From contig JALQPE010001958.1 in NCBI GenBank assembly GCA_030407315.1, forward strand, positions 124,001 to 188,000: 64,000 bases of DNA, written 5' to 3'. Source of the DNA: Asparagopsis taxiformis. Its lineage: Eukaryota; Rhodophyta; Florideophyceae; Bonnemaisoniales; Bonnemaisoniaceae. This document shows, piece by piece, positions 2,336 to 12,699 of this stretch; position 1 is the first letter of the stretch; each line of letters begins with the position of its first letter. The notes below the pieces were generated by a model that was given only the letters and a program-made list of their open reading frames with translations, searched no databases and was not told the DNA's origin. The position numbers were made by a program, and so were the translations under genes.

Positions 2336-2671
2336 GGCAGGACTCAAGGAGAGTGAAGAAGGGATCTAGGAAGATGGGGAATGAAGCTGTGAGGTGTTTC
2401 TGGTATGTGTATATTTTGGGGGCATACGATAGAAGTGAGAGTGGGTTTCAAGTGGTGTAAGATTTTGCTGACCATGTTCGTGTTTGATGTCTTGATGATT
2501 TAATGGGCTGGGGTGGTGTCGAGGAAAGCGGGGATGGAATTGGGAAGGAGCGGATTTTTGTAATCTAGGTCGTGAGGGTTCTTGAAGTATGTGCGGATGG
2601 TGGTGCATGGCGTTCGGATGGTAGGGAGAACGCGATAGTGAGGGAGATGGGTGATCGACGATATGCTGACA

Positions 2672-2832
2672 GGTATTTTGTATTCTGGCTGGATACGTAT
2701 TTCATATTCTGGCTGGATACATATTCCGTATTCTGACTGGATACGTATTTCGTATTCTGGCTGGATACGTATTTCCTATTCTAACCGGGTATTTATTTCC
2801 TATTCTGACCAGATATGTATTTCCTATTCTAG
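2672..2832. repeat. 24-bp tandem repeat, about 6-7 units
   Basis: The unit is close to ggatacgtatttcgtattct plus ggct and repeats with slight drift. Because 24 is divisible by 3, it translates as an octapeptide repeat (YSGWIRIS-like) in one frame. I take that as a by-product of repeat length, not a protein. Confidence 0.8.
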
Positions 2833-2955
2833 AGAGACGTATTGTATACGAGCAGTTTCGTAAATGAGAGAATAAAATACGGTCCGATATGGGCCCTGAA
2901 TTTACCATCCGCTGTAATTTATTCCCTCCCGGTTTTCGCTGATATATTGTATACT

Positions 2956-3127
2956 GGATGTCGGGTCCTAGTATTCCGCCATATGTACTAGAGAAAGTGG
3001 ATGTCTGGCCCTAGTATTCCGCCATATGTACAAGAGAAAGTGGATGTCGGGCCCTAGTATTCCGCCATATGTACTAGAGAAAGTGGATGTCGGGCCCTAG
3101 TATTCCGCCATATGTACTAGAGAAAGT
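2956..3127. repeat. 43-bp tandem repeat, four units
   Basis: Four consecutive 43-bp units start at 2956, 2999, 3042 and 3085. Each starts ggatgtcggg and ends gtactagagaaagt. Differences between units are only a few bases, so the array is young. It runs directly into the GGACGTCC hairpin. Confidence 0.85.
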
Positions 3128-3172
3128 GGACGTCCGCATCCAAAAATTTATTTTTTTGGACGCGGACGTTCA
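3127..3172. repeat. Imperfect hairpin built on GGACGTCC
   Basis: Two ~20-bp arms (tggacgtccgcatccaaaaa and its near-complement ending ggacgttca) face each other across a 6-base AT loop, with two mismatches. A second GGACGTCC follows at 3222-3229. The same core recurs near 33.0, 55.9-56.0, 57.6, 58.0, 60.7 and 62.8 kb. Confidence 0.6.
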
Positions 3173-3429
3173 TTTGTTCTAGTAAATCTCGGGGCCGACT
3201 AGGACCCGTACTAGAGAGACTGGACGTCCGCGTCCACTTCCGAAAACACAGACGAAGAGTGACTATAAGAAACATGACGAAATGATCTGGATCATCATGA
3301 CGGCTCTCGGCATGGGCTTTGGAGTGGCGCTCACCTGGCTGGCGTCTTCTTCTCGCAGTTGTAGAATCTCCGTTGGTCGTATCCATCGCGCTCTGTTTCA
3401 CAACATTCTAACCTTGCGGTGAATGGCGC

Positions 3430-4210
3430 TCGACAACCGGCAGCGAAGCACGAGTGCCGGCATCTTCTGCTCGGATTTATCATTTTCATTCACGAAAGCG
3501 GTCATTATCTAGCCGCTAGACTACAGGGGAGTCGGGTGAAGAACTTTTGTATTGGTTTGGTCCCAAGCTATTCTCATTCACGGCGGACGATTCGGAGATG
3601 GAATTCACTGTAAGAGCTCTGGCACTGGGAGGTTATGTAGCGTTTCCGAACATTCGCGTATCGACGCGGAGACGGAGGAGGAGAAGATCGACGACGATCC
3701 TGACTTGTTACAAAATCGTCCTGTTCTGGATCGAGCGATTGTGATCTCGGCTGGGGTTATTGTGAATATTATTCTAGCATGGGCTGCAATTTTCACGTCT
3801 GTTTCGTCAATCGGGCTACCGACGTACTCGTTCAACGCTGGTGTGACGATTGCAAACATAGTGGACAGCAATGGTGCGGGGGCAAAAGCTGGTCTTACTA
3901 TGGGCGATGTGATTCTAAAGGTGGACGGGGAGACAGTACCAGAACCATTGGACAGCGCGAGTATGGTGGCGGAGAAAATCCGGACGAGTCGAGAACGCGC
4001 GATGAATTTCGAGTACTACGCGAGAAGGAATTGAATATGTCTGTTAGAGCGAAATGCTTTGGAAGCAGACGTGGAAGGGAGTGGCTAGTATATTTACAAA
4101 CTTTGAGCAATCTTCAAAGCAGCTTTCAGGACCGATTGGCGTCGTTTCTATGGGAGCGGATTTGGCGCGCAACGACACGGCAGCACTATTGAAGTTCTGC
4201 GCTGTGTTTC
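3430..4210 (+). pseudogene. Site-2 protease / RseP-like (M50) intramembrane metalloprotease, broken copy
   Basis: RIP metalloproteases cut membrane-embedded substrates; algal homologues are often in plastids. The zinc motif HESGH is encoded at 3491-3505 inside a hydrophobic helix (FIIFIHESGH), followed by LAARLQGSRVKNFCIG. Continuing in other frames are a GPKLFSF..VRALALGGYVAF segment, then NRPVLDRAIVISAG and a hydrophobic stretch, a PDZ-like segment (AGLTMGDVILKVDGETV), and SGPIGVVSMGADLA. This is the full family order except the C-terminal NxxPxxxLDGG helix, which is missing. Frameshifts fall near 3550, 3650 and 4030. No plastid-targeting start could be placed. It is a decayed host-gene copy, not a working gene. 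Confidence 0.75.
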
Positions 4211-4540
4211 CATTGCATGGCAAGTTGACGCTCACCTCCGTCTCGTTGCTCCCAGTTGAGCCCAATATGCCTCAATTTTGTACCAATTCTGCGAAATCGC
4301 GCACACTAACGGATTGTTGATGACTTTTTCTAGTGTTCAGCTCACGCATCACGCTTATCAGCAGATAACCTCCTGTCGTCGCTATTCACTAGCATGACGG
4401 AAGAGTAAAATGGTTGCTGACATTTATGTTTCTACTCCCATAGATCTAGTTGACGTCGAAGTGTTTCGAGAGTAAATGTATCTAGCACTCCTCCTCGAAG
4501 ATAAGGTACATCTAGAATAGCAGAACTTACACTAACTGAA
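4211..4540. other. Gene-free spacer
   Basis: No coding signal was seen. It contains one half-copy of the 15-bp element motif (cagaac near 4521). The left boundary of the multi-gene element probably lies here, but I could not find a convincing terminal inverted repeat. Confidence 0.35.
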
Positions 4541-5380
4541 TCAAGCACGACCAGTCTTTGGTAGCACACAAGGTTGGTATTTGCAGGTTAGTGCATGACC
4601 TGCACACTTCTTGTACCAGTGCAATTTGAAGTGGGAGACGTTGCCTTCTCGATCTTTCTTCGTTGAGAGAATCTTGCCAAGCCAGAAAGGCTCCTCAGAT
4701 GTACAACCGTCTCCTTTGATAATAACAAATGAATTGGCTGCATATTTTTCATCACTATCACCACGTTCGACACAATCGTCTTCATCGGAACCATTACTAC
4801 TATTATCACCGCATCCATCGCCACCACCATCTCCGAAATCAATGCACTGCTCAGATATATTGTCTTTTTCATCACCCTGCTGTTCTTCTACGTTGTTACC
4901 TGACAATATCCTCTTAGTCTTCCATAGAATATCTCTTGAATAAAGGAACGTAGACATTAGAAACACATAACAAACTCGTATTGTGCCATATTTGTAACAC
5001 TTGAAATCCTTCACGAACAGTGATTCCAGAAATAAACACCGCTCCGCTTTGTTCATTTTCGCAACTCTTTTCAGGTCTTCACAGAGCTTTTTTCCATCAA
5101 CATGCTTGAAGCAGAAATACTTACAGCAAGTTAAATTTTTTAGCTCGTTGTCACTTACCCTTTTCTCAATTTCAATGGCTTTGGTAGCCCTCTTCGCCTT
5201 TAGGCCGCTAGCCTGAGCTTCTTGGATGCGTTTCCCAGAGCGGGAGGAGCCATAGTTGGCTGAACGTGGCGCTTTCCTCCCTACCGTAGAACGGATATTG
5301 ACGACCGGGGATGTGCGAGGAGACTTTTTCGCTAGAGTCTTCCGTTTCACTGTACCTTCTATGGTGTTTCTGAAACCCAT
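4541..5380 (-). CDS. Core-less relative of the DUF7869-like transposase
   Basis: An intact frame of about 279 residues from the ATG at 5380 to a stop at 4541. It is divergent to the methyltransferase gene. Residues ~80-155 (CCKYFCFKH ... CYKYGTIRVCYVFLMSTFLYSR) match the Cys-rich N-terminal block of the transposase at 9670-12165 (CCKKRRCF ... LFCGRKVCYKFLESSFMFSR). The last ~60 residues (GDGCTSEEPFWLGKILS ... LHWYKKC) match that protein's C-terminus (GYGCTKEMPFWLGQIIE ... IRWYEVY). The whole RNase-H-like catalytic core is absent and replaced by an acidic, Gly/Asp/Asn-rich linker. The N-terminus is basic. It may be an internally deleted transposase kept as a DNA-binding regulator, or an independent accessory protein. 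Function is inferred. Confidence 0.65.
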   Translation of the reverse strand: MGFRNTIEGTVKRKTLAKKSPRTSPVVNIRSTVGRKAPRSANYGSSRSGKRIQEAQASGLKAKRATKAIEIEKRVSDNELKNLTCCKYFCFKHVDGKKLCEDLKRVAKMNKAERCLFLESLFVKDFKCYKYGTIRVCYVFLMSTFLYSRDILWKTKRILSGNNVEEQQGDEKDNISEQCIDFGDGGGDGCGDNSSNGSDEDDCVERGDSDEKYAANSFVIIKGDGCTSEEPFWLGKILSTKKDREGNVSHFKLHWYKKCAGHALTCKYQPCVLPKTGRA

Positions 5381-5383
5381 CAC

Positions 5384-6588
5384 ATTTCGCCAATGTAGAG
5401 TAGCAGCTACAACGCAATTAAATAAAAACAGAACGATGTTCTGAAATTTGTATCATAACGTCGCTCTGGCTGGAAGCTTCCAGCAACACAATTGATATTT
5501 GATACGAACTTAAAATTTTTAATGTTCTGTAAACTTTCCAAAAACCTTTACACTTGTACAGAAAGGTGCACAACTTCTTCCCGAGCCCAAAAACACTACA
5601 AGACTATCCAAATTCCCTTTGTAGATTGCAAGAAATTTAAGTAACACTGAACTGTGTTCTGGTTCTCGCATCAGAACCTTGTTCTGTCTCGAAGCGTCCC
5701 GCCCAGAAATGGCCAGAACGGTTTAGACCCAGTAACCGTTGCGAAGCTATTAAAATCCCATATGTACTCTCCATAAAGTTTAGGTGAAAAAGAACTGTGT
5801 TCTGGTTATATCATCAGAATGACTTTCTGTTCAGAAGCTTCCAGCCCAAAAGAGACGTTCGGAATTAATTGGAACTATTTTTCTGTCGACTATGCGGACC
5901 GGAAAATGTGACACGGGAGGTGAATACATCCTCCAAGTTGGACAAGATTGATACCTATCCGCGAATATTGATATTTGATGCATAGGTTTCATGTCCTAAG
6001 ATTAGCTTGAGCATTCTGACACATCATCTCGGGACGATTATTTCCATTTGAATGTAACCTCGCGAGACTATACCCTTCAAAATTGCCATCGGAATATCAA
6101 AAAAATTTGGGCCCTAAGCCCACCAATTATGGTCACTCAATGCAGTCTATGTGAAAAACGTTTCTATTGGTTATGCGAAGGATAGAACAAAATATCTGTT
6201 GTCAAATATTGATATTTTCTAGACAGATAAACGACACCATTGGCCCGGCTTTCTATTCCATACATCACTTCTATATAGTTTCTCATCTCTCTGATGACCA
6301 TGTGATTGCCAGATGTGCCGAAAGTACTGCTCCCGAAATGCAGATTGATTGGGAGGAATGAAATCTGACTGGAATGCAACTTTACAAATTTTGAACTCGT
6401 AAAAGGTTCACTGACTTACTTATCATGGAACTCAACACTTGCGAGAAACCTCTTCATGTAGCAAAAGGAGGCTCCAATCATTCAATTATCCTGTCGTTTT
6501 CGTTCCTCGTTTCTGGACAAAGGTTCAGCCTGGTCAAGTTCACAGCGCGAAACCACAGTTTTACTCAGAACTCGATTGTGACCAGAAG
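5384..6588. promoter_or_regulatory. Divergent intergenic region with palindromic motif cluster
   Basis: This gap separates the minus-strand core-less ORF from the plus-strand ParB/methyltransferase gene and probably holds both promoters. It has perfect CAGAACNNNGTTCTG copies at 5429-5443 and 5672-5686, and one-mismatch copies at 5647-5661 and 5790-5804. A 16-bp palindrome, GCTGGAAGCTTCCAGC, is at 5469-5484, with a related gaagcttccagcc at ~5834. The 5647 and 5790 blocks are direct repeats sharing aactgtgttctggtt and catcagaa. Exact start sites cannot be placed. Confidence 0.5.
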
Positions 6589-9458
6589 ATGAGTAAGCGA
6601 TTCTTTCAAGCAAAACACAAAATGAGCTCTACAGAACCTAGTTCTGGTCGGGAGGATGCATCCGTTAAAGCATTGTTCGCTGATATCATGGAAGGCTCGA
6701 CAAACAGCCGTGTAGATCCTCGATCTTGCATTCCGTTGACATCAATTCGTCAAATATCCCGCTCTGGTGTCTTGAGATTGAAGTCTATATTCAGTGGAGG
6801 TTCCACAGTTTCTTCGGGAAAGAGAGATGGAATGCCCATAGAGAATATTGGAGATGGATTTGTTGCTGGATCTGATAATGCTATTGTTGTAGAGCTAACG
6901 GGAGGTTTGAAAAGACTTGTGTTGGACTTCTTCCGATCTAAACTCGGCTCAGACGGGGAACCTATCTCTGAATCCCAAGCCGCAGAAAAAGCAGAAGATC
7001 GTTCTGTCTGGTACGGAGTAGTAGACGGAATGCACAGAATGACTGCTATTCGTGAATTAATAGACGAAGACCCAGAACACTGGGAGTCTTTCTTGTGGCC
7101 TGTGACTATTCTGAAAGGCGGACACAGCTTGCAAACTTTGAAGCAATTAGGAAGGCATCAGAATAAGAAACATGATGCATCCTTTTACATCGAATCAACT
7201 TTCTATGATACTTTGGTCGGTTTAAGAGATGAAGCTGACCGATTGAAGACCATGTCGAATGGTAGAGCTCCATCTGCGAAACAGATCGCTTCAGCGTATG
7301 ATGGTTGTACGCATCTGAAGGACAATACTATAAGACAAGCAGCAACAACAGCAGTTAGACTTCCACTAAGTGTAATACATGAGATCGGAGTAATCATGAA
7401 CGAAGAGCACCCGGATTTGGCAGAACCAAGTTCTGCTGAATATAAACCGCTGGAAAAATCCATGAATATGCGATGCACCGATTGTCGAGTATACAGGAAA
7501 TTCATCAACATAACTTCAATCAAGTCCGCGACAAAGTTCATGAGAGCCTCAGGTCCGGACGGAGAAAAGAATCAAATCAACACGCTTCACCGGCTGAGGG
7601 AAATTTCTAGAACGAACAAGTTCAAAGCAGCATCGTATAAGGTAACAGTGGAGCAGTTTGAGAGTGCTTGTAGTGCAATGAGGGAGGCTCGAAAGTTTGA
7701 AGCTCTTTTAGAAGATGATGAATGGCCGTCTGGAATGGAATTAGTCAAGCACAACTTACTCCGTACCACAAAATTTGATTGTGAAGTTACTGCCAATTTC
7801 GGGAATGATGGATATGTTTTAGATTCTCTTCTTAAACAATATCGGAAAGTTTGTCCTGAGGCTGCACCCCTTAAAGAAAAAAAGTTTTCCGAGAATTTCA
7901 CCAGAGAGAAAGAACTTCAGGCTAAAGACAATTGTACTGCCTTAGCTTCCGCGGATGATTCTCTTCCAATCGCAGCTGAAGATATCACTAAAGGGGGTGA
8001 AGTTCCTGAAGATCAAGTTCCACATCCAGTGCCGAGCATCACTATAGAAGGAAAGGCACCAAGAACATTACCACATTATCTAGGCGATATGCCTGAATTA
8101 GAAGTCTTGACCAAACCTAATTCGGAACCAAATTCCGTCCAACCGAAGCAGGTTAACAGGAATAATTCCGCTCCATCAAACGCTCCGAGTGCCAATTCTG
8201 TCCGACTGAATACACGTCCAAAACGAGTTGCTTGTACTACAGAAGTGCTGGATGAGAAAATTAACTATCTTGACGAAATGGGTGTTTCATGCCACCAGAT
8301 GAAATGGCAAGATTTTGATAAGACCGTTTGGACAGATGGTGATGCTCTCTTCGATCTTATACTGACAGATCCACCGTATGGGACGCCTAAATCTCGTTCT
8401 TTGCGAAAAACTTCTTACGATAACTTCATAGATGACAAGGAAGTGAAAGAGATATGTCAGTTTGCCAGGCGCGTCTTGAAGCCGGGAGGGTGGTTTCTTG
8501 CATTTGTTTCATTTTGAAACTTCGAACTTTTCTACAACGAACTTCACCGCATCGGATTTGCCGGACCAGATACCCATTCGTAATTATGAAGGATACCAGT
8601 ACGATGCAAGCTCACAGAGGTGATCAGTTTCCTCAGAACGCTTGTGAATTTTCTGTCATTGCAAGGGCACCAGGAATTTCGAAAAGTGCATTCAAGCCAG
8701 ATTTGAGGAGCCCTTACAACTTCGTTCCTTCGAAGACAAGCAGACGGTTTGCTGCTATGTCAGGTATACCCGTTTCAAAAGAAAAGCTCCTTTTGCCAGG
8801 CACGAAATCTCCCGTCCTAACAGAGGAGAAAAATGTGGGTCTGCTTGCTGAACTAATCAATACATTTTGTCCAGAACGGGGTTCTGTTTTGGATATTTAC
8901 GGAGGTACTTTCACTACTGGAATAGCTTCGTTGCGAACTGCACGTTCATGTGTAGTAATCGAGTCAAGCGCATCTACATTTCGTCTTGCCCATGAGAGGC
9001 TACGTGCAGTGGCAGAGATACTGTACCGAAAAAGTCCATCCTCACACCACGCAATGAAGAAGAGAAAGACGCGAGAGAATTCAAAAGCTGAAAGCAGTGG
9101 AGAAATCACGAAGATGATCGAAAAGAGCAGTACTATTGTTCAAAGTGGAAACGATATGCTGAAAGGAGGGGACAGAGTTGAATTACTCCTTGATGGAATC
9201 ACTATTGGTTATGCAAAGCTTCTGTCAGCTCCAGATAGTGACAGTGATTTACATACTTCTATTCATAATGTTCCTCTCTCTGAGTACGAGAAAGATGGAC
9301 AGAAGCTAGTTGCATGCTATTCCTTCAAAGTTAAGGAGGATGCTGGCGATAAAAAATACCCATATGGTTATGGAGGCATCGAGAAGCCTCCGGGAAACCT
9401 GAAGGGCTTAGCGGGAATATTCTCTTGGGACCTACACAGCATGAGATGTTCCAATTGA
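6589..9458 (+). pseudogene. ParB-like domain fused to permuted DNA amino-methyltransferase, broken by a stop and a frameshift
   Basis: I chose the ATG at 6589 (MSKRFFQAKHK); the frame upstream has no ATG. Residues ~40-200 hold a ParB/sulfiredoxin-like segment with VVDGMHRMTAI at ~7018-7050, comparable to ParB DGxHRxxA motifs. A long linker follows. Then come the methyltransferase motif DPPYG (8368-8382) and FARRVLKPGGWFLAF. An in-frame TGA ends the frame at 8515-8517. The same frame continues as FELFYNELHRIGFAG, then a frameshift near 8575 leads to the C-terminal half with motif I (SVLDIYGGTFTTGIASL, ~8885-8935) and VVIESS. Motif IV before motif I is the beta-class order of N6_N4_Mtase; DPPY favours adenine N6, but N4-cytosine is possible. 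The tail resembles transposon-linked DUF8039-like domains (weak). This copy is probably inactive. Confidence 0.72.
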
Positions 9459-9669
9459 GATAAAGATGTTTGCGAATGAGTACTATTTTTGTACATTGCA
9501 CTACTGAAGAGCGATTCCAAACATCTAGAGAAGAATGGAATAAATCTTTTCACATCGATCATTACCGTTGTACAATATTTGGCGCGAAATTTGTTCTCTG
9601 TTTTTGTAAATTTGAATTATATGCTCTATCAGTACTTAAAAATTTTCCCCGCCTTCTGTTCACCTCTCA
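9459..9669. other. Spacer between methyltransferase and transposase
   Basis: AT-rich, 211 bases, no ORF of note. It presumably holds the promoter of the transposase gene, which is on the same strand. Confidence 0.35.
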
Positions 9670-12165
9670 ATGAAAGTGAGCGTTCCAAGTGAAAACCACT
9701 GCAAACTCATGGAGGACACATTTTGCCTCTCCGACACCAACCGCAAACTGATTCACAAAAGTGCTGTCGGTATTCTTGCAACGCTGGGGATCGAAGCCGA
9801 AGCTGAACAATGCACCAGCGAGAACTCATTTCCGCATCATCCAAACCGATCAAAATCATCTGCAAACCAAGGAATTCCATTGAGCAATGATATAATTCCA
9901 ATTCGTTTCAACAGAAACCGCCAAGAATATGTCAGAGGTTCATTGAATCGTTCGGAATCTGAAATTCTTTTGGAGCGTAATGACGGTTACGGAAATATTC
10001 CATTTCAATCACCGCTGGAAGTAAAACAAGCTTCTGTATCTGACTGCTTATCTCCAAGTACTGCAACAGAAAGATATTCTGATTCTTGTGCGTCATCTTG
10101 TCCAATTGGAAAACCATCCATCTATCAGTTGGATACAAGTCCACGAAAAAACCATGATAGCGACAAGAGGAGTAATGGAAATCGTGTGAGCAAAAGGATG
10201 ATCGAGAAGAGGAAGCATGTCACGTCTTTATCTAATCTAGACATCAGAAAACAGTTCTGTTGTAAGAAAAGGAGATGCTTTCGAAGTACAGACCCAACGT
10301 TTCTGAGGTCTGAAGTCAGCCGAGTACTTTTATGGGGAAGGATTGATCGGCGAAGATACTTGGAGAAATTATTCGATCCCAGCTCTAAAGTTTACCTTTT
10401 CTGCGGGAGGAAAGTCTGCTACAAATTCCTGGAGTCTTCCTTCATGTTTTCTAGACACATGCAACGATCAGTGAAGATTTCATGGGCAAATGGAAGATCA
10501 GTCTGTTTTTCATCAGCTCAAAAAGACCCAGAGAGTCCACAGAGGGACTCTGTTATATGTTTCCTGGACATATTTGCGGATTCTACAGCGGAGCGAATGC
10601 CTGGCACCAACGAAAGACACCTTCCACTCTTTCAAAAGAAATCTGTCTATGAAGTTTTCCGAGAACAGTACACTGTTCTGCATGGATATCATAATATACC
10701 TTCTTTGGCATACTTCTACACAACTTGGAAGAAGTATTGCGGTGATATCAAAGTAAGAAGAATTCAGCGATTCACAAAATGTACTGATTGTGAGTATATT
10801 CGGGACGCTCTAGCCAAGTATGGAACAGACAAGAAGAGTACAGCTCCTCTTCTTGAACGGAGACGTTTGCATATAGAGATGGTTTCTCGGGAACGTAGAG
10901 AGTATCAGAAGAGGTGTGAGCTAGCTGCGTTGTACCCTTCGCAGTATACATCACTTATCGTGGATGGTGCAGACCAGTCTGGATATGGGCTTCCCCATTT
11001 CACTGTCAATACAAAAGCGACAGTTGGGCATAGTTTGAAGTTCAGGCTGATAGGTATACTAGAGCATGGTGCTCGAAAACATCTCTCGTTGTACACCATG
11101 ACCGCAGAATTTGAAACTGGTGCTAACCATATCGTGGAAGCGCTTCACAGAACGCTTTCAAGCAAAGCATTAGGATCTAAACTACAGGGAAAAGTTTTTT
11201 TGCAAGTTGACAATTGCACACGGGAGAACAAAAATTCATTCTTGTTCTGCTACTTGGAATGCTTAGTGGCATGGGGTGCGTACGAAGAGATATTTGTGTC
11301 TTTCCTTCCTATAGGACACACTCACTCTGATATCGACCAAGCCTTCAGTTGTACATCAAGGAGACTGAAATTCAATAACGCAGCAACTATGGAGTATCTC
11401 CACGATGAACTGCGAAAGTCTTTCACGCCTGAACCATCTGTCTCCCGCATGCTACACATTATCAATTTCTCGGGTTTATGTAAGATGGAAAACCGTATTG
11501 GGAAGGTGAAACCTTTTTCAAAGTACCGCTACTTCAGATTCTTCAGAGATTCCGAGACAGAACGGGGTTCTGCCTTCTTCAAAACTGCTTGTGATGTCAA
11601 AATTTCTTGTGATGACCAGTGGAGAAGCCTTGCAGCATTGACCAATGGTCTCAAAGGATTTACTCGATCTCCACCAAACATTCACGCGGCACCCTGTAAC
11701 TCTGTGGTCTGTCCACCAGATAAGGAAAAAATTCTTCTAAGGCTCAGATCAGAGGAGGTAAGGGTGAGCAGTGTCGCTAAAATGAGATCACTTCATGCAC
11801 TGGTTGCTCAAGTGTACAGAGACAGAGACGAACCACTACATTGGAACTTGGAAGAGTGCGTAGAGCTGAATGGAATTTACAGTAATCAGAGTTTTTCCAA
11901 CCATGGGTTTAACGAGGATGAAGAAAATTTACAGGAAATGATGGCTCAAACAGACCTACCTTATTCTAGGAATCGATTTGTTGCTGTTAATGGATACGGA
12001 TGTACGAAGGAAATGCCTTTCTGGCTAGGACAGATTATCGAATGTATCCAGGATGGAAGTGGCGTGACAAGAAATCTGTTCATAAGATGGTATGAGGTGT
12101 ATGACAAAGGGGATGCATGGAGTGGTAAGTATCGTCCGGCGACAGTTGGAAGAGGAAAAATATAG
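9670..12165 (+). CDS. DUF7869-like putative transposase
   Basis: An intact 831-residue frame from a clear ATG. The first ~190 residues are low-complexity. Residues ~195-260 form a Cys-rich block (FCCKKRRCF ... LFCGRKVCYKF). The core has three acidic motifs in order, as in RNase-H-fold nucleases: LIVDGADQSGYG (~431), LQVDNCTRENKNSFLFCYLE (~512) and LPIGHTHSDIDQAFS (~547). The N.KN and GHTH..ID signatures are typical of the DUF7869 family found across algal, oomycete and animal genomes and usually read as transposase-like. The C-terminus (~770-830, GYGCTKEMPFWLGQ) is shared with the core-less ORF at 4541-5380. Which acidic residues are catalytic is inferred. It is the only undamaged large element gene here, so it may still be active. 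Confidence 0.7.
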   Translation: MKVSVPSENHCKLMEDTFCLSDTNRKLIHKSAVGILATLGIEAEAEQCTSENSFPHHPNRSKSSANQGIPLSNDIIPIRFNRNRQEYVRGSLNRSESEILLERNDGYGNIPFQSPLEVKQASVSDCLSPSTATERYSDSCASSCPIGKPSIYQLDTSPRKNHDSDKRSNGNRVSKRMIEKRKHVTSLSNLDIRKQFCCKKRRCFRSTDPTFLRSEVSRVLLWGRIDRRRYLEKLFDPSSKVYLFCGRKVCYKFLESSFMFSRHMQRSVKISWANGRSVCFSSAQKDPESPQRDSVICFLDIFADSTAERMPGTNERHLPLFQKKSVYEVFREQYTVLHGYHNIPSLAYFYTTWKKYCGDIKVRRIQRFTKCTDCEYIRDALAKYGTDKKSTAPLLERRRLHIEMVSRERREYQKRCELAALYPSQYTSLIVDGADQSGYGLPHFTVNTKATVGHSLKFRLIGILEHGARKHLSLYTMTAEFETGANHIVEALHRTLSSKALGSKLQGKVFLQVDNCTRENKNSFLFCYLECLVAWGAYEEIFVSFLPIGHTHSDIDQAFSCTSRRLKFNNAATMEYLHDELRKSFTPEPSVSRMLHIINFSGLCKMENRIGKVKPFSKYRYFRFFRDSETERGSAFFKTACDVKISCDDQWRSLAALTNGLKGFTRSPPNIHAAPCNSVVCPPDKEKILLRLRSEEVRVSSVAKMRSLHALVAQVYRDRDEPLHWNLEECVELNGIYSNQSFSNHGFNEDEENLQEMMAQTDLPYSRNRFVAVNGYGCTKEMPFWLGQIIECIQDGSGVTRNLFIRWYEVYDKGDAWSGKYRPATVGRGKI

Positions 12166-12450: not shown

Positions 12451-12699
12451 TCATACAAAAATCAGTGTTTCACCCAGAAGGATTGAGGACTCCAATAGGT
12501 TATCTGTGGTACACTCACGTTGTAGCTCATTACCTCCCAGACTTTCTCTGTTGATGTAGGCTGCATCACTGCTGCGGATTTCTCCCTGCAGTTTCCCAGA
12601 AAGCTGTGTACTGGGACCGGCCACATTGAGTGAATCGAATCTCGCCTTTGTCCTACGACTTGTGGTTTTCTTTCGAATAGGAGTCCGTCTCGGAGCCAT
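12451..12699 (-). CDS. Small basic ORF at the right end of the element, unknown
   Basis: An 82-residue frame starting MAPRRTPIRKKTTSRRTKAR, with a strongly basic N-terminus that could bind DNA or act as a nuclear signal. No family is recognised. It faces the transposase and mirrors the placement of the minus-strand ORF at the left end. It could be a remnant exon or a chance frame. Confidence 0.3.
   Translation of the reverse strand: MAPRRTPIRKKTTSRRTKARFDSLNVAGPSTQLSGKLQGEIRSSDAAYINRESLGGNELQRECTTDNLLESSILLGETLIFV

What the first reader, a model, noticed from the sequence alone, without database searches (positions are those of the whole stretch)
5429..11572. An element-specific palindrome, CAGAACNNNGTTCTG, occurs ten times inside the ParB-methyltransferase transposon
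Six perfect copies (5429, 5672, 6632, 7431, 8872, 11558) and four with one mismatch (5647, 5790, 6992, 10245) lie within about 6.1 kb, in promoters and in two different genes. Random expectation for perfect copies is about 0.0004. I saw none in the other 55 kb by eye. A ParB-domain gene and a DNA methyltransferase domain in the same element make a parS-like partition site or a recognition/methylation site an attractive reading. A transposase-binding site is the main alternative. Coding copies are kept in one phase with varied spacers, so selection on DNA rather than protein is plausible.
Basis: partly seen in the sequence, partly recalled or inferred. Interest (0 to 1): 0.9.

Follow-up and report, generated by a model that had tools for sequence, protein, structure and literature searches.

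The report
Transposon's own palindromic docking sites
A 15-letter mirror-image DNA word occurs eleven times (six perfect, five one letter off) inside the genes and control region of one mobile DNA element in a eukaryote's genome and resembles a word in that element's own ends, so it is likely a docking site for a protein that the element itself makes.

Summary
The palindrome is real and element-specific. In the window all six perfect and five one-mismatch copies lie in 5429-11572 (one coordinate corrected, one site added). The 141 Mb genome has 241 perfect copies against 5 for the reversed control; 40 of the 50 places listed lie in copies of this element. Protein coding does not explain it: codon shuffling gives 0.04 perfect coding sites, 4 are observed (0 of 300). 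An unbiased dyad scan picks the same core, CAGAA-N5-TTCTG, in this family and in a 62-65%-identical one. Of ten family cores, three of one clade are enriched (14, 11, 5 sites); seven are not or marginally (0-3). The element is a DNA transposon with terminal inverted repeats and 4-bp target duplications; the repeats carry an imperfect dyad of the same geometry, also in families without internal enrichment. Best reading: end-type binding sites, multiplied inside the element, for a transposon-encoded protein, most likely the transposase or its core-less paralogue. The ParB-methyltransferase as reader (self-marking) stays open; such genes in algal transposons are already published (PMC12477816).

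The parts
5429..5443 (.). palindrome, perfect (first of a 25-bp-spaced pair with 5454-5468)
5454..5468 (.). palindrome, 2 mismatches, paired with 5429
5647..5661 (.). palindrome, 1 mismatch, paired with 5672
5672..5686 (.). palindrome, perfect
5790..5804 (.). palindrome, 1 mismatch, paired with 5815
5815..5829 (.). palindrome, 2 mismatches (core CAGAA-N5-TTCTG exact)
6632..6646 (.). palindrome, perfect, inside ParB-methyltransferase ORF
6992..7006 (.). palindrome, 1 mismatch, in ORF; core present at the orthologous place in family B, and in D (by eye)
7421..7435 (.). palindrome, perfect (finding gave 7431)
8872..8886 (.). palindrome, perfect, at methyltransferase motif I (motif named by eye); B has CGGAA-N5-TTCTG there
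10245..10259 (.). palindrome, 1 mismatch, in DUF7869 ORF
10666..10680 (.). palindrome, 1 mismatch, in DUF7869 ORF; also at the orthologous place in B (not in the finding)
11558..11572 (.). palindrome, perfect, in DUF7869 ORF; core kept in B with changed spacer amino acids
12435..12469 (-). right terminal inverted repeat, ending AAATCAGTGTT; holds imperfect dyad CGAAA-N5-TTCTG
12470..12473 (.). TCAC, 4-bp target-site duplication (same 4 bases stand left of the full copy on C827)
4541..5383 (-). core-less ORF; shares sequence with the DUF7869 gene (inverted DNA match 4667-4735 / 11971-12039, and N-terminal resemblance by eye)
6439..8517 (+). predicted ParB-like domain and first part of N6/N4 DNA methyltransferase (frame interrupted in this copy)
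8454..9458 (+). second part of the methyltransferase in another frame
9670..12165 (+). DUF7869 protein, likely the transposase
3255..4385 (+). stretch with M50-peptidase and PDZ matches, carried by the element (captured cargo, inferred)

Best explanation
The palindrome is an element-specific dyad that sits in the control region and genes of a DNA transposon and, in imperfect form, in its terminal inverted repeats, and it is likely bound by a protein that the transposon itself encodes, most probably the DUF7869 protein (the likely transposase) or its core-less paralogue acting as a dimer. Shown: the dyad is element-specific, its excess is not due to protein coding, its core CAGAA-N5-TTCTG recurs in the related families B and D, and the terminal repeats read in families A, B, C and J hold a dyad of the same geometry. 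Inferred: the end-recognition site is the older one and was multiplied inside the element in the A/B/D branch, becoming fully symmetric in A. Inferred: binding inside serves self-control, that is, repression of the divergent promoter by the three paired sites 25 bp apart and titration or mispairing of transposase by the sites in the genes, which would damp transposition. Untested: binding itself, and which protein binds.
For: Element specificity and chance tests. Codon-shuffle test: A 4 perfect coding sites vs 0.04, B 4 CGGAA-N5-TTCTG vs 0.20, 0 of 300 shuffles reach either. Unbiased scan of 1024 half-sites x 11 spacers: best in A is CAGAA/5 (14; two controls 4 and 5), best in B is also CAGAA/5 (11; controls 3 and 5). 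Enrichment limited to one clade: A 14, B 11, D 5 sites with at most one mismatch (0 of 100 simulations each); J 3, C384 3, C603 2, E 1, F 3, G 2, I 0; clade A+(B, D-like P0002) support 0.998. Terminal repeats: AACACTGATTT-N3-TATGAACAGAA has 104+91 matches in the genome, 0 in the reversed control; the left repeat of A and both repeats of B hold CAGAATGTACTTCCG, an exact match to the B motif. A matrix from 5 internal B sites, terminal site left out, ranks the terminal site 1 of 4287 (A left arm), 2 of 8057 (B left), 7 of 9087 (B right), 2 of 3237 (C left), 3 of 9986 (C603 right), 11 of 9087 (C384 right), 20 of 8146 (A right). Captured cargo in A's left arm (4.3 kb, L042) has no copy with 0 or 1 mismatch to the 12-base palindrome. 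At A coding sites, codons for residues shared with B are identical in 15 of 24, elsewhere 414 of 1011, p 0.03. The core-less ORF and the DUF7869 gene share sequence (inverted match 71% over 69 bases; N-terminal resemblance by eye).
Against: With the matrix from A's own internal sites the terminal sites rank only 3, 7, 14, 7, 12, 59 and 42 in the same order, so A's internal sites are better dyads than its ends. Sites are not concentrated at the ends, as transposase arrays usually are (recalled). One perfect palindrome lies in the cargo arm of a B element (L043 3105), and one of the cargo-arm positions of A matches the 10-base core with one mismatch (L042 1257). Half-site counts outside A are at most about threefold above expectation and mostly less. 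The p of 0.03 is weak. DUF7869's link to RNase-H-type transposases rests on weak structural matches (best E 0.0086 to a terminase nuclease, Mos1 0.031). No binding data exist.
Confidence: 0.5

Rival explanations
1. The palindrome is the address of the element's ParB-methyltransferase: the ParB-like part would bind the dyad as ParB/KorB proteins bind scattered palindromic operators, and the beta-class methyltransferase would modify the element's own DNA near it, marking it as active or as self.
Against: Seven of ten cores keep the gene with no or marginal dyad enrichment (C384, C603, J, E, F, G, I), and no other symmetric dyad stood out in them except arrays that belong to neighbouring repeats. 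ParB kinship not confirmed by Pfam, NCBIfam or comparison with KorB. Does not by itself explain the dyad in the terminal repeats.
Confidence: 0.25
2. A host DNA-binding protein (repressor or silencing factor) recognises the dyad, and the element carries it as a regulatory hitch-hiker or as a target of host control.
For: Four of the eleven sites, with three further two-mismatch ones nearby, lie in the divergent control region and its edge in 25-bp-spaced pairs.
Against: Selection for host-repressor sites inside coding sequence is hard to see; sites vary with element family and resemble the terminal repeats; none with 0 or 1 mismatch in the other 51 kb of the window.
Confidence: 0.1
3. The sites act as RNA: the palindrome folds as a hairpin in the transcripts.
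For: All five internal B-type sites (CGGAA-N5-TTCTG, which keeps pairing by G-U) read in the sense strand of the gene they lie in: 4102, 4858, 6594, 7825 on +, 816 in the core-less gene on -.
Against: Five of five is p about 0.06 two-sided; of two such sites in family J one is in sense (4507) and one is not (965); all five one-mismatch A sites break the pair (read); stems are short; the terminal repeats carry the dyad too.
Confidence: 0.06
4. Chance or protein constraint.
For: Five of seven coding copies share one reading phase and the peptide PERGSV at 8872 is conserved across A, B, C384, C603 but for its last residue neighbourhood.
Against: Codon shuffles 0 of 300; sequence shuffles 0.005 perfect.
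Confidence: 0.02

Closest known systems
ParB-plus-methyltransferase accessory genes of algal DNA transposons (Sola1-1_Ec32 of Ectocarpus; green and red algal cases cited there), PMC12477816 (passages seen)
   Same: ParB-like plus N6/N4 methyltransferase protein inside a large eukaryotic DNA transposon; the self-marking idea is in print there
   Different: Here the likely transposase is DUF7869, not Sola; no recognition sequence is given in the passages I read; here a concrete candidate site is described
VANC anti-silencing proteins and their motifs in Arabidopsis VANDAL transposons, PMC5735166 (passages seen)
   Same: short motif enriched in one transposon family and changing between related families
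   Different: VANC motifs are mainly noncoding and in tandem arrays; here 7 of 11 sites are in genes, dispersed, and dyad-symmetric
piggyBat/piggyBac transposase sites with imperfect palindromes in the ends, PMC11707139 (passages seen)
   Same: palindromic transposase sites in the ends, and an extra internal site that lowers activity
   Different: those sites lie within about 120 bp of the end; here they run through 6 kb including genes
KorB/ParB operators of plasmids (operator layout recalled; of KorB only the R751 protein was fetched)
   Same: about a dozen scattered palindromic operators (recalled)
   Different: no ParA seen in the window ORFs, eukaryotic transposon, sequence kinship unproven

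Membership tests
DNA (TIR) transposon | terminal inverted repeats | tested here: met
   left and right ends of A, B and C copies share AACACTGATTT-N3-TATGAACAGAA
DNA (TIR) transposon | target-site duplication | tested here: met
   4 bp in 7 of 8 distinct insertions read (A348, A540, A895, A827, B837, C673, C1701); A2370 matches at 3 of 4 bases; B837/B1581 and C673/C991 share flanks and are counted once each
DNA (TIR) transposon | DDE/RNase-H transposase | tested here: inconclusive
   DUF7869 hit E 7.7e-46; structural hits weak, none at E <= 0.001, Mos1 E 0.031
transposase binding-site arrays | motif also in the terminal repeats | tested here: met
   exact for the B motif in A left and both B ends; imperfect for the A motif, and A's own right end fits poorly
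transposase binding-site arrays | motif concentrated near the ends | tested here: not met
   sites run over 5429-11572
parABS partition system | ParA ATPase partner in the element | tested here: inconclusive
   none in the six window ORF translations scanned with Pfam; cargo arms of other copies not scanned
parABS partition system | ParB N-domain plus HTH | tested here: inconclusive
orphan DNA methyltransferase with own recognition site | intact beta-class methyltransferase | tested here: met
   1014-codon frame without a stop in 14 of 21 full-length family A hits; CcrM-like fold for relative P0002; the window copy itself is interrupted
orphan DNA methyltransferase with own recognition site | methylation at the palindrome | not testable with these tools
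   no modification data
VANC-type anti-silencing | motif mainly noncoding and tandem | tested here: not met
   7 of 11 sites coding, dispersed; only two of the three control-region pairs lie in a 105-bp repeat

The most novel reading that the evidence does not exclude
The palindrome is the address of a eukaryotic transposon's own ParB-methyltransferase: a phage-type ParB clamp loads at scattered dyads in the element's promoter and genes, spreads, and lays adenine methylation on the transposon's own DNA, an active self-mark against silencing whose address word changes as the element families diverge.
Probability: 0.22. Interest if true: 0.88.

Novelty: new variant of a known kind. Interest (0 to 1): 0.62.

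Why it matters
Transposons that carry their own DNA methyltransferase are known from algae, but what they recognise is not in the passages I read. This gives a defined 15-bp site, families in which it is enriched and families in which it is not, and three candidate proteins, so binding and marking can be tested directly. It also shows binding-type sites kept inside coding sequence, which I recall as unusual for eukaryotic transposons (not surveyed).

Tried and rejected
Chance and protein constraint: rejected by shuffles. Conservation across A copies: uninformative, the copies are 98-99% identical in DNA. A seemingly diverged copy on C2161 proved 99% identical to A with frame errors. Dyads of other families: a CTGGTT-N3-AACCAG array on C125 lay beyond the stretch shared with its relative C326, so I take it for a neighbouring repeat; likewise GGCAGTA-N5-TACTGCC-like sites on C1931; TGTAAG in C603 is mostly a 3' cluster. 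A TTCGGT-N6-ACCGAA pair in the C603 control region: 2 sites with at most 2 mismatches, 0.475 expected, not pursued. Half-site AACAGAA as a family-wide signal: about twofold in A, B, C384 and D, none in C603 and C1931, dropped as evidence. Loose matches (up to 2 mismatches) to CAGAA-N5-TTCTG in C384 coding sequence, 15 against 5.8, 0 of 300 shuffles: left unexplained. Viral relatives: 79 pattern matches in viral contigs, none confirmed. HTH_ParB hits in the genome looked like Tc1/mariner transposases by eye in the four loci fetched of 14 places. ParB fold search: the structural second look was filled by the methyltransferase domain, so ParB chains did not appear among the rows shown. Papers: DUF7869 0 hits; searches were seen as listings with abstract starts; passages were seen in PMC12704722, PMC12477816, PMC5735166 and PMC11707139; the Bostrychia paper was not held.
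Full report
What was claimed and what is there. One search finds CAGAAC-N3-GTTCTG perfectly at 5429, 5672, 6632, 7421, 8872 and 11558 and with one mismatch at 5647, 5790, 6992, 10245 and 10666. The finding's 7431 is 7421 and 10666 is new. No copy with 0 or 1 mismatch lies elsewhere in the window. In the core, spacer 3 is the only spacer with perfect copies (spacers 0-11 tried). Shuffles give 0.005 perfect copies per 8.1 kb. The whole genome (141 Mb, 3156 contigs, an unnamed eukaryote) has 241 perfect copies, 5 of the reversed control. The listing is capped at 50 places: 40 lie in copies of this element. The six copies listed in full (C167, C348, C487, C540, C550, C551) each carry six sites with the same spacers; C641 was cut off at four. 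The other ten are six places with a CGC/GCG spacer (the three looked at are a hAT-like repeat by eye) and four on C481 spaced about 4308 bp.

The element. ORFs: a core-less ORF on the minus strand (4541-5383), a ParB-like plus N6/N4 methyltransferase gene (6439-9458, interrupted in the window copy and on C827; a 1014-codon frame without a stop in 14 of 21 full-length family A hits) and a DUF7869 gene (9670-12165). The right end is fixed at 12469 by five other copies with unrelated flanks beyond it. The left end was found in other copies: AACACTGATTTGCATATGAACAGAATGTACTTCCGGAAAC, 13.1-13.3 kb from the right end on C348, C540, C550, C551, C827 and C895, with cargo between. The window copy lacks its left end; 2600-3255 belongs to another repeat. 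Target duplications are 4 bp in 7 of 8 distinct insertions, 3 of 4 bases in the eighth. Cargo in A: a TOG-domain-like gene (by eye) and a stretch with M50 peptidase and PDZ matches (Pfam); B and C left arms carry other ORFs, in C a Maf-like one (by eye).

Is it DNA-level? Shuffling synonymous codons within each ORF, keeping protein and codon usage, gives 0.04 perfect A sites against 4 observed and 0.39 with at most one mismatch against 7 (0 of 300 each). In family B the related CGGAA-N5-TTCTG occurs 4 times in coding sequence against 0.20 (0 of 300). Family C (C384) has no exact match to any of the four patterns tried; its loose matches (up to 2 mismatches) to CAGAA-N5-TTCTG were 15 against 5.8 (0 of 300), which I cannot place. 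Of the A coding sites, 6992, 8872, 10666 and 11558 have a recognisable dyad at the orthologous place in B; 6632, 7421 and 10245 do not. At 11558 the spacer residues differ (TERGSA vs PETNSD) and the dyad core stays. Codon identity inside sites is 15 of 24 against 414 of 1011 elsewhere (p 0.03); A against C gives 10 of 23 against 330 of 894, no difference worth the name.

Across families. Proteins of the ParB-methyltransferase gene define families A, B (C589, 65%), D (C2426, 59%), C (C384, C603, 55%), J (C1640) and the more distant E, F, G, I (38-44% to A in the alignment); C326 is an F copy. An unbiased scan over all 1024 five-base half-sites and spacers 0-10 returns CAGAA with spacer 5 as the best dyad in A (14) and, independently, in B (11); C384, C603 and D have no standout, and C1931's lies in a neighbouring repeat. 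Counting CAGAA-N5-TTCTG with at most one mismatch in ten cores without terminal repeats: A 14, B 11, D 5 (0 of 100 simulations reach these), J 3 (11 of 100), C384 3 (5), C603 2 (21), E 1 (41), F 3 (4), G 2 (14), I 0. A and (B, P0002) form a clade (support 0.998); P0002 resembles D by eye; J and C are its sister.

The terminal repeats. The ends read in A, B, C and J's right end hold a dyad of the same geometry: CAGAATGTACTTCCG (A left, B both), CAGAAYGTACTTTC(C/G) (C), CAGAATATATTTTCG (A right); D keeps a similar but decayed right end. Matrices made only from internal sites rank the terminal site as follows, in the order A left, B left, B right, C left, C603 right, C384 right, A right: B matrix 1 of 4287, 2 of 8057, 7 of 9087, 2 of 3237, 3 of 9986, 11 of 9087, 20 of 8146; A matrix 3, 7, 14, 7, 12, 59, 42. 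So the fit is good for the B motif and moderate to poor for the A motif.

Reading. The dyad at the ends is shared by the whole branch, clear internal enrichment only by A/B/D, so I infer that the end site was multiplied inside. The natural binder is a protein that reads the ends, the DUF7869 protein (RNase-H-type core, weak structural support) or the core-less ORF that shares sequence with it. Three internal site pairs 25 bp apart in the control region (5429/5454, 5647/5672, 5790/5815; the last two lie in a 105-bp repeat) look like operators; sites in genes could sequester transposase, as an extra internal site lowers activity in piggyBat (PMC11707139, passages). None of this binding is shown.

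The ParB-methyltransferase alternative. The methyltransferase is CcrM-like. The first half is compatible with the ParB-methyltransferase fusions known from phages (PMC12704722, passages; BFVD top hit), but sequence tests were inconclusive. PMC12477816 already reports such genes in algal transposons and suggests self-binding and self-modification (passage). The dyad is a candidate address, weakened by seven of ten cores that keep the gene without clear dyad enrichment.

Verdict. Observation real with small corrections, interpretation partly supported, mechanism inferred; most likely an end-type protein-binding dyad multiplied inside one transposon clade.

Noticed in passing
window about 5964 and 6202; L016 about 1849 and 2089; L018 about 1362 and 1604; L017 1993 and 2236; L020 1842 and 2085: Two copies of AATATTGATATT-like sequence about 240 bp apart in the control region of the five family copies inspected, several flanked by inverted arms that differ between families (by eye).
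   Followed up: no
L040-L042, L043, L044 (left arms of A, B, C copies): Elements carry different host-like genes: TOG-domain-like, M50 peptidase, Maf-like, others (by eye except M50).
   Followed up: partly
L071 7641-8282: Array of CTGGTT-N3-AACCAG palindromes (4 perfect) with the same 6-3-6 geometry, in what looks like a repeat next to element F.
   Followed up: partly
C1931 (L061 reverse complement 4399-5513): Array of GGCAGTA-N5-TACTGCC-like palindromes beyond the point where the element match ends.
   Followed up: partly
L043 3105-3119: A perfect CAGAACACTGTTCTG in the cargo arm of a B element.
   Followed up: no
L016 816, 4102, 4858, 6594, 7825: All five internal B-type sites read CGGAA-N5-TTCTG in the sense strand of their gene; family J has one of two so.
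   Followed up: partly
G000 C481 28958-41895: Four perfect palindromes spaced about 4308 bp, apparently a long tandem repeat.
   Followed up: no
window 8514-8600: The methyltransferase frame of this copy and of the copy on C827 is interrupted, while 14 of 21 full-length hits are open.
   Followed up: partly
L017 coding sequence: Family C384 has 15 loose matches (up to 2 mismatches) to CAGAA-N5-TTCTG against 5.8 expected, without a clear consensus.
   Followed up: no
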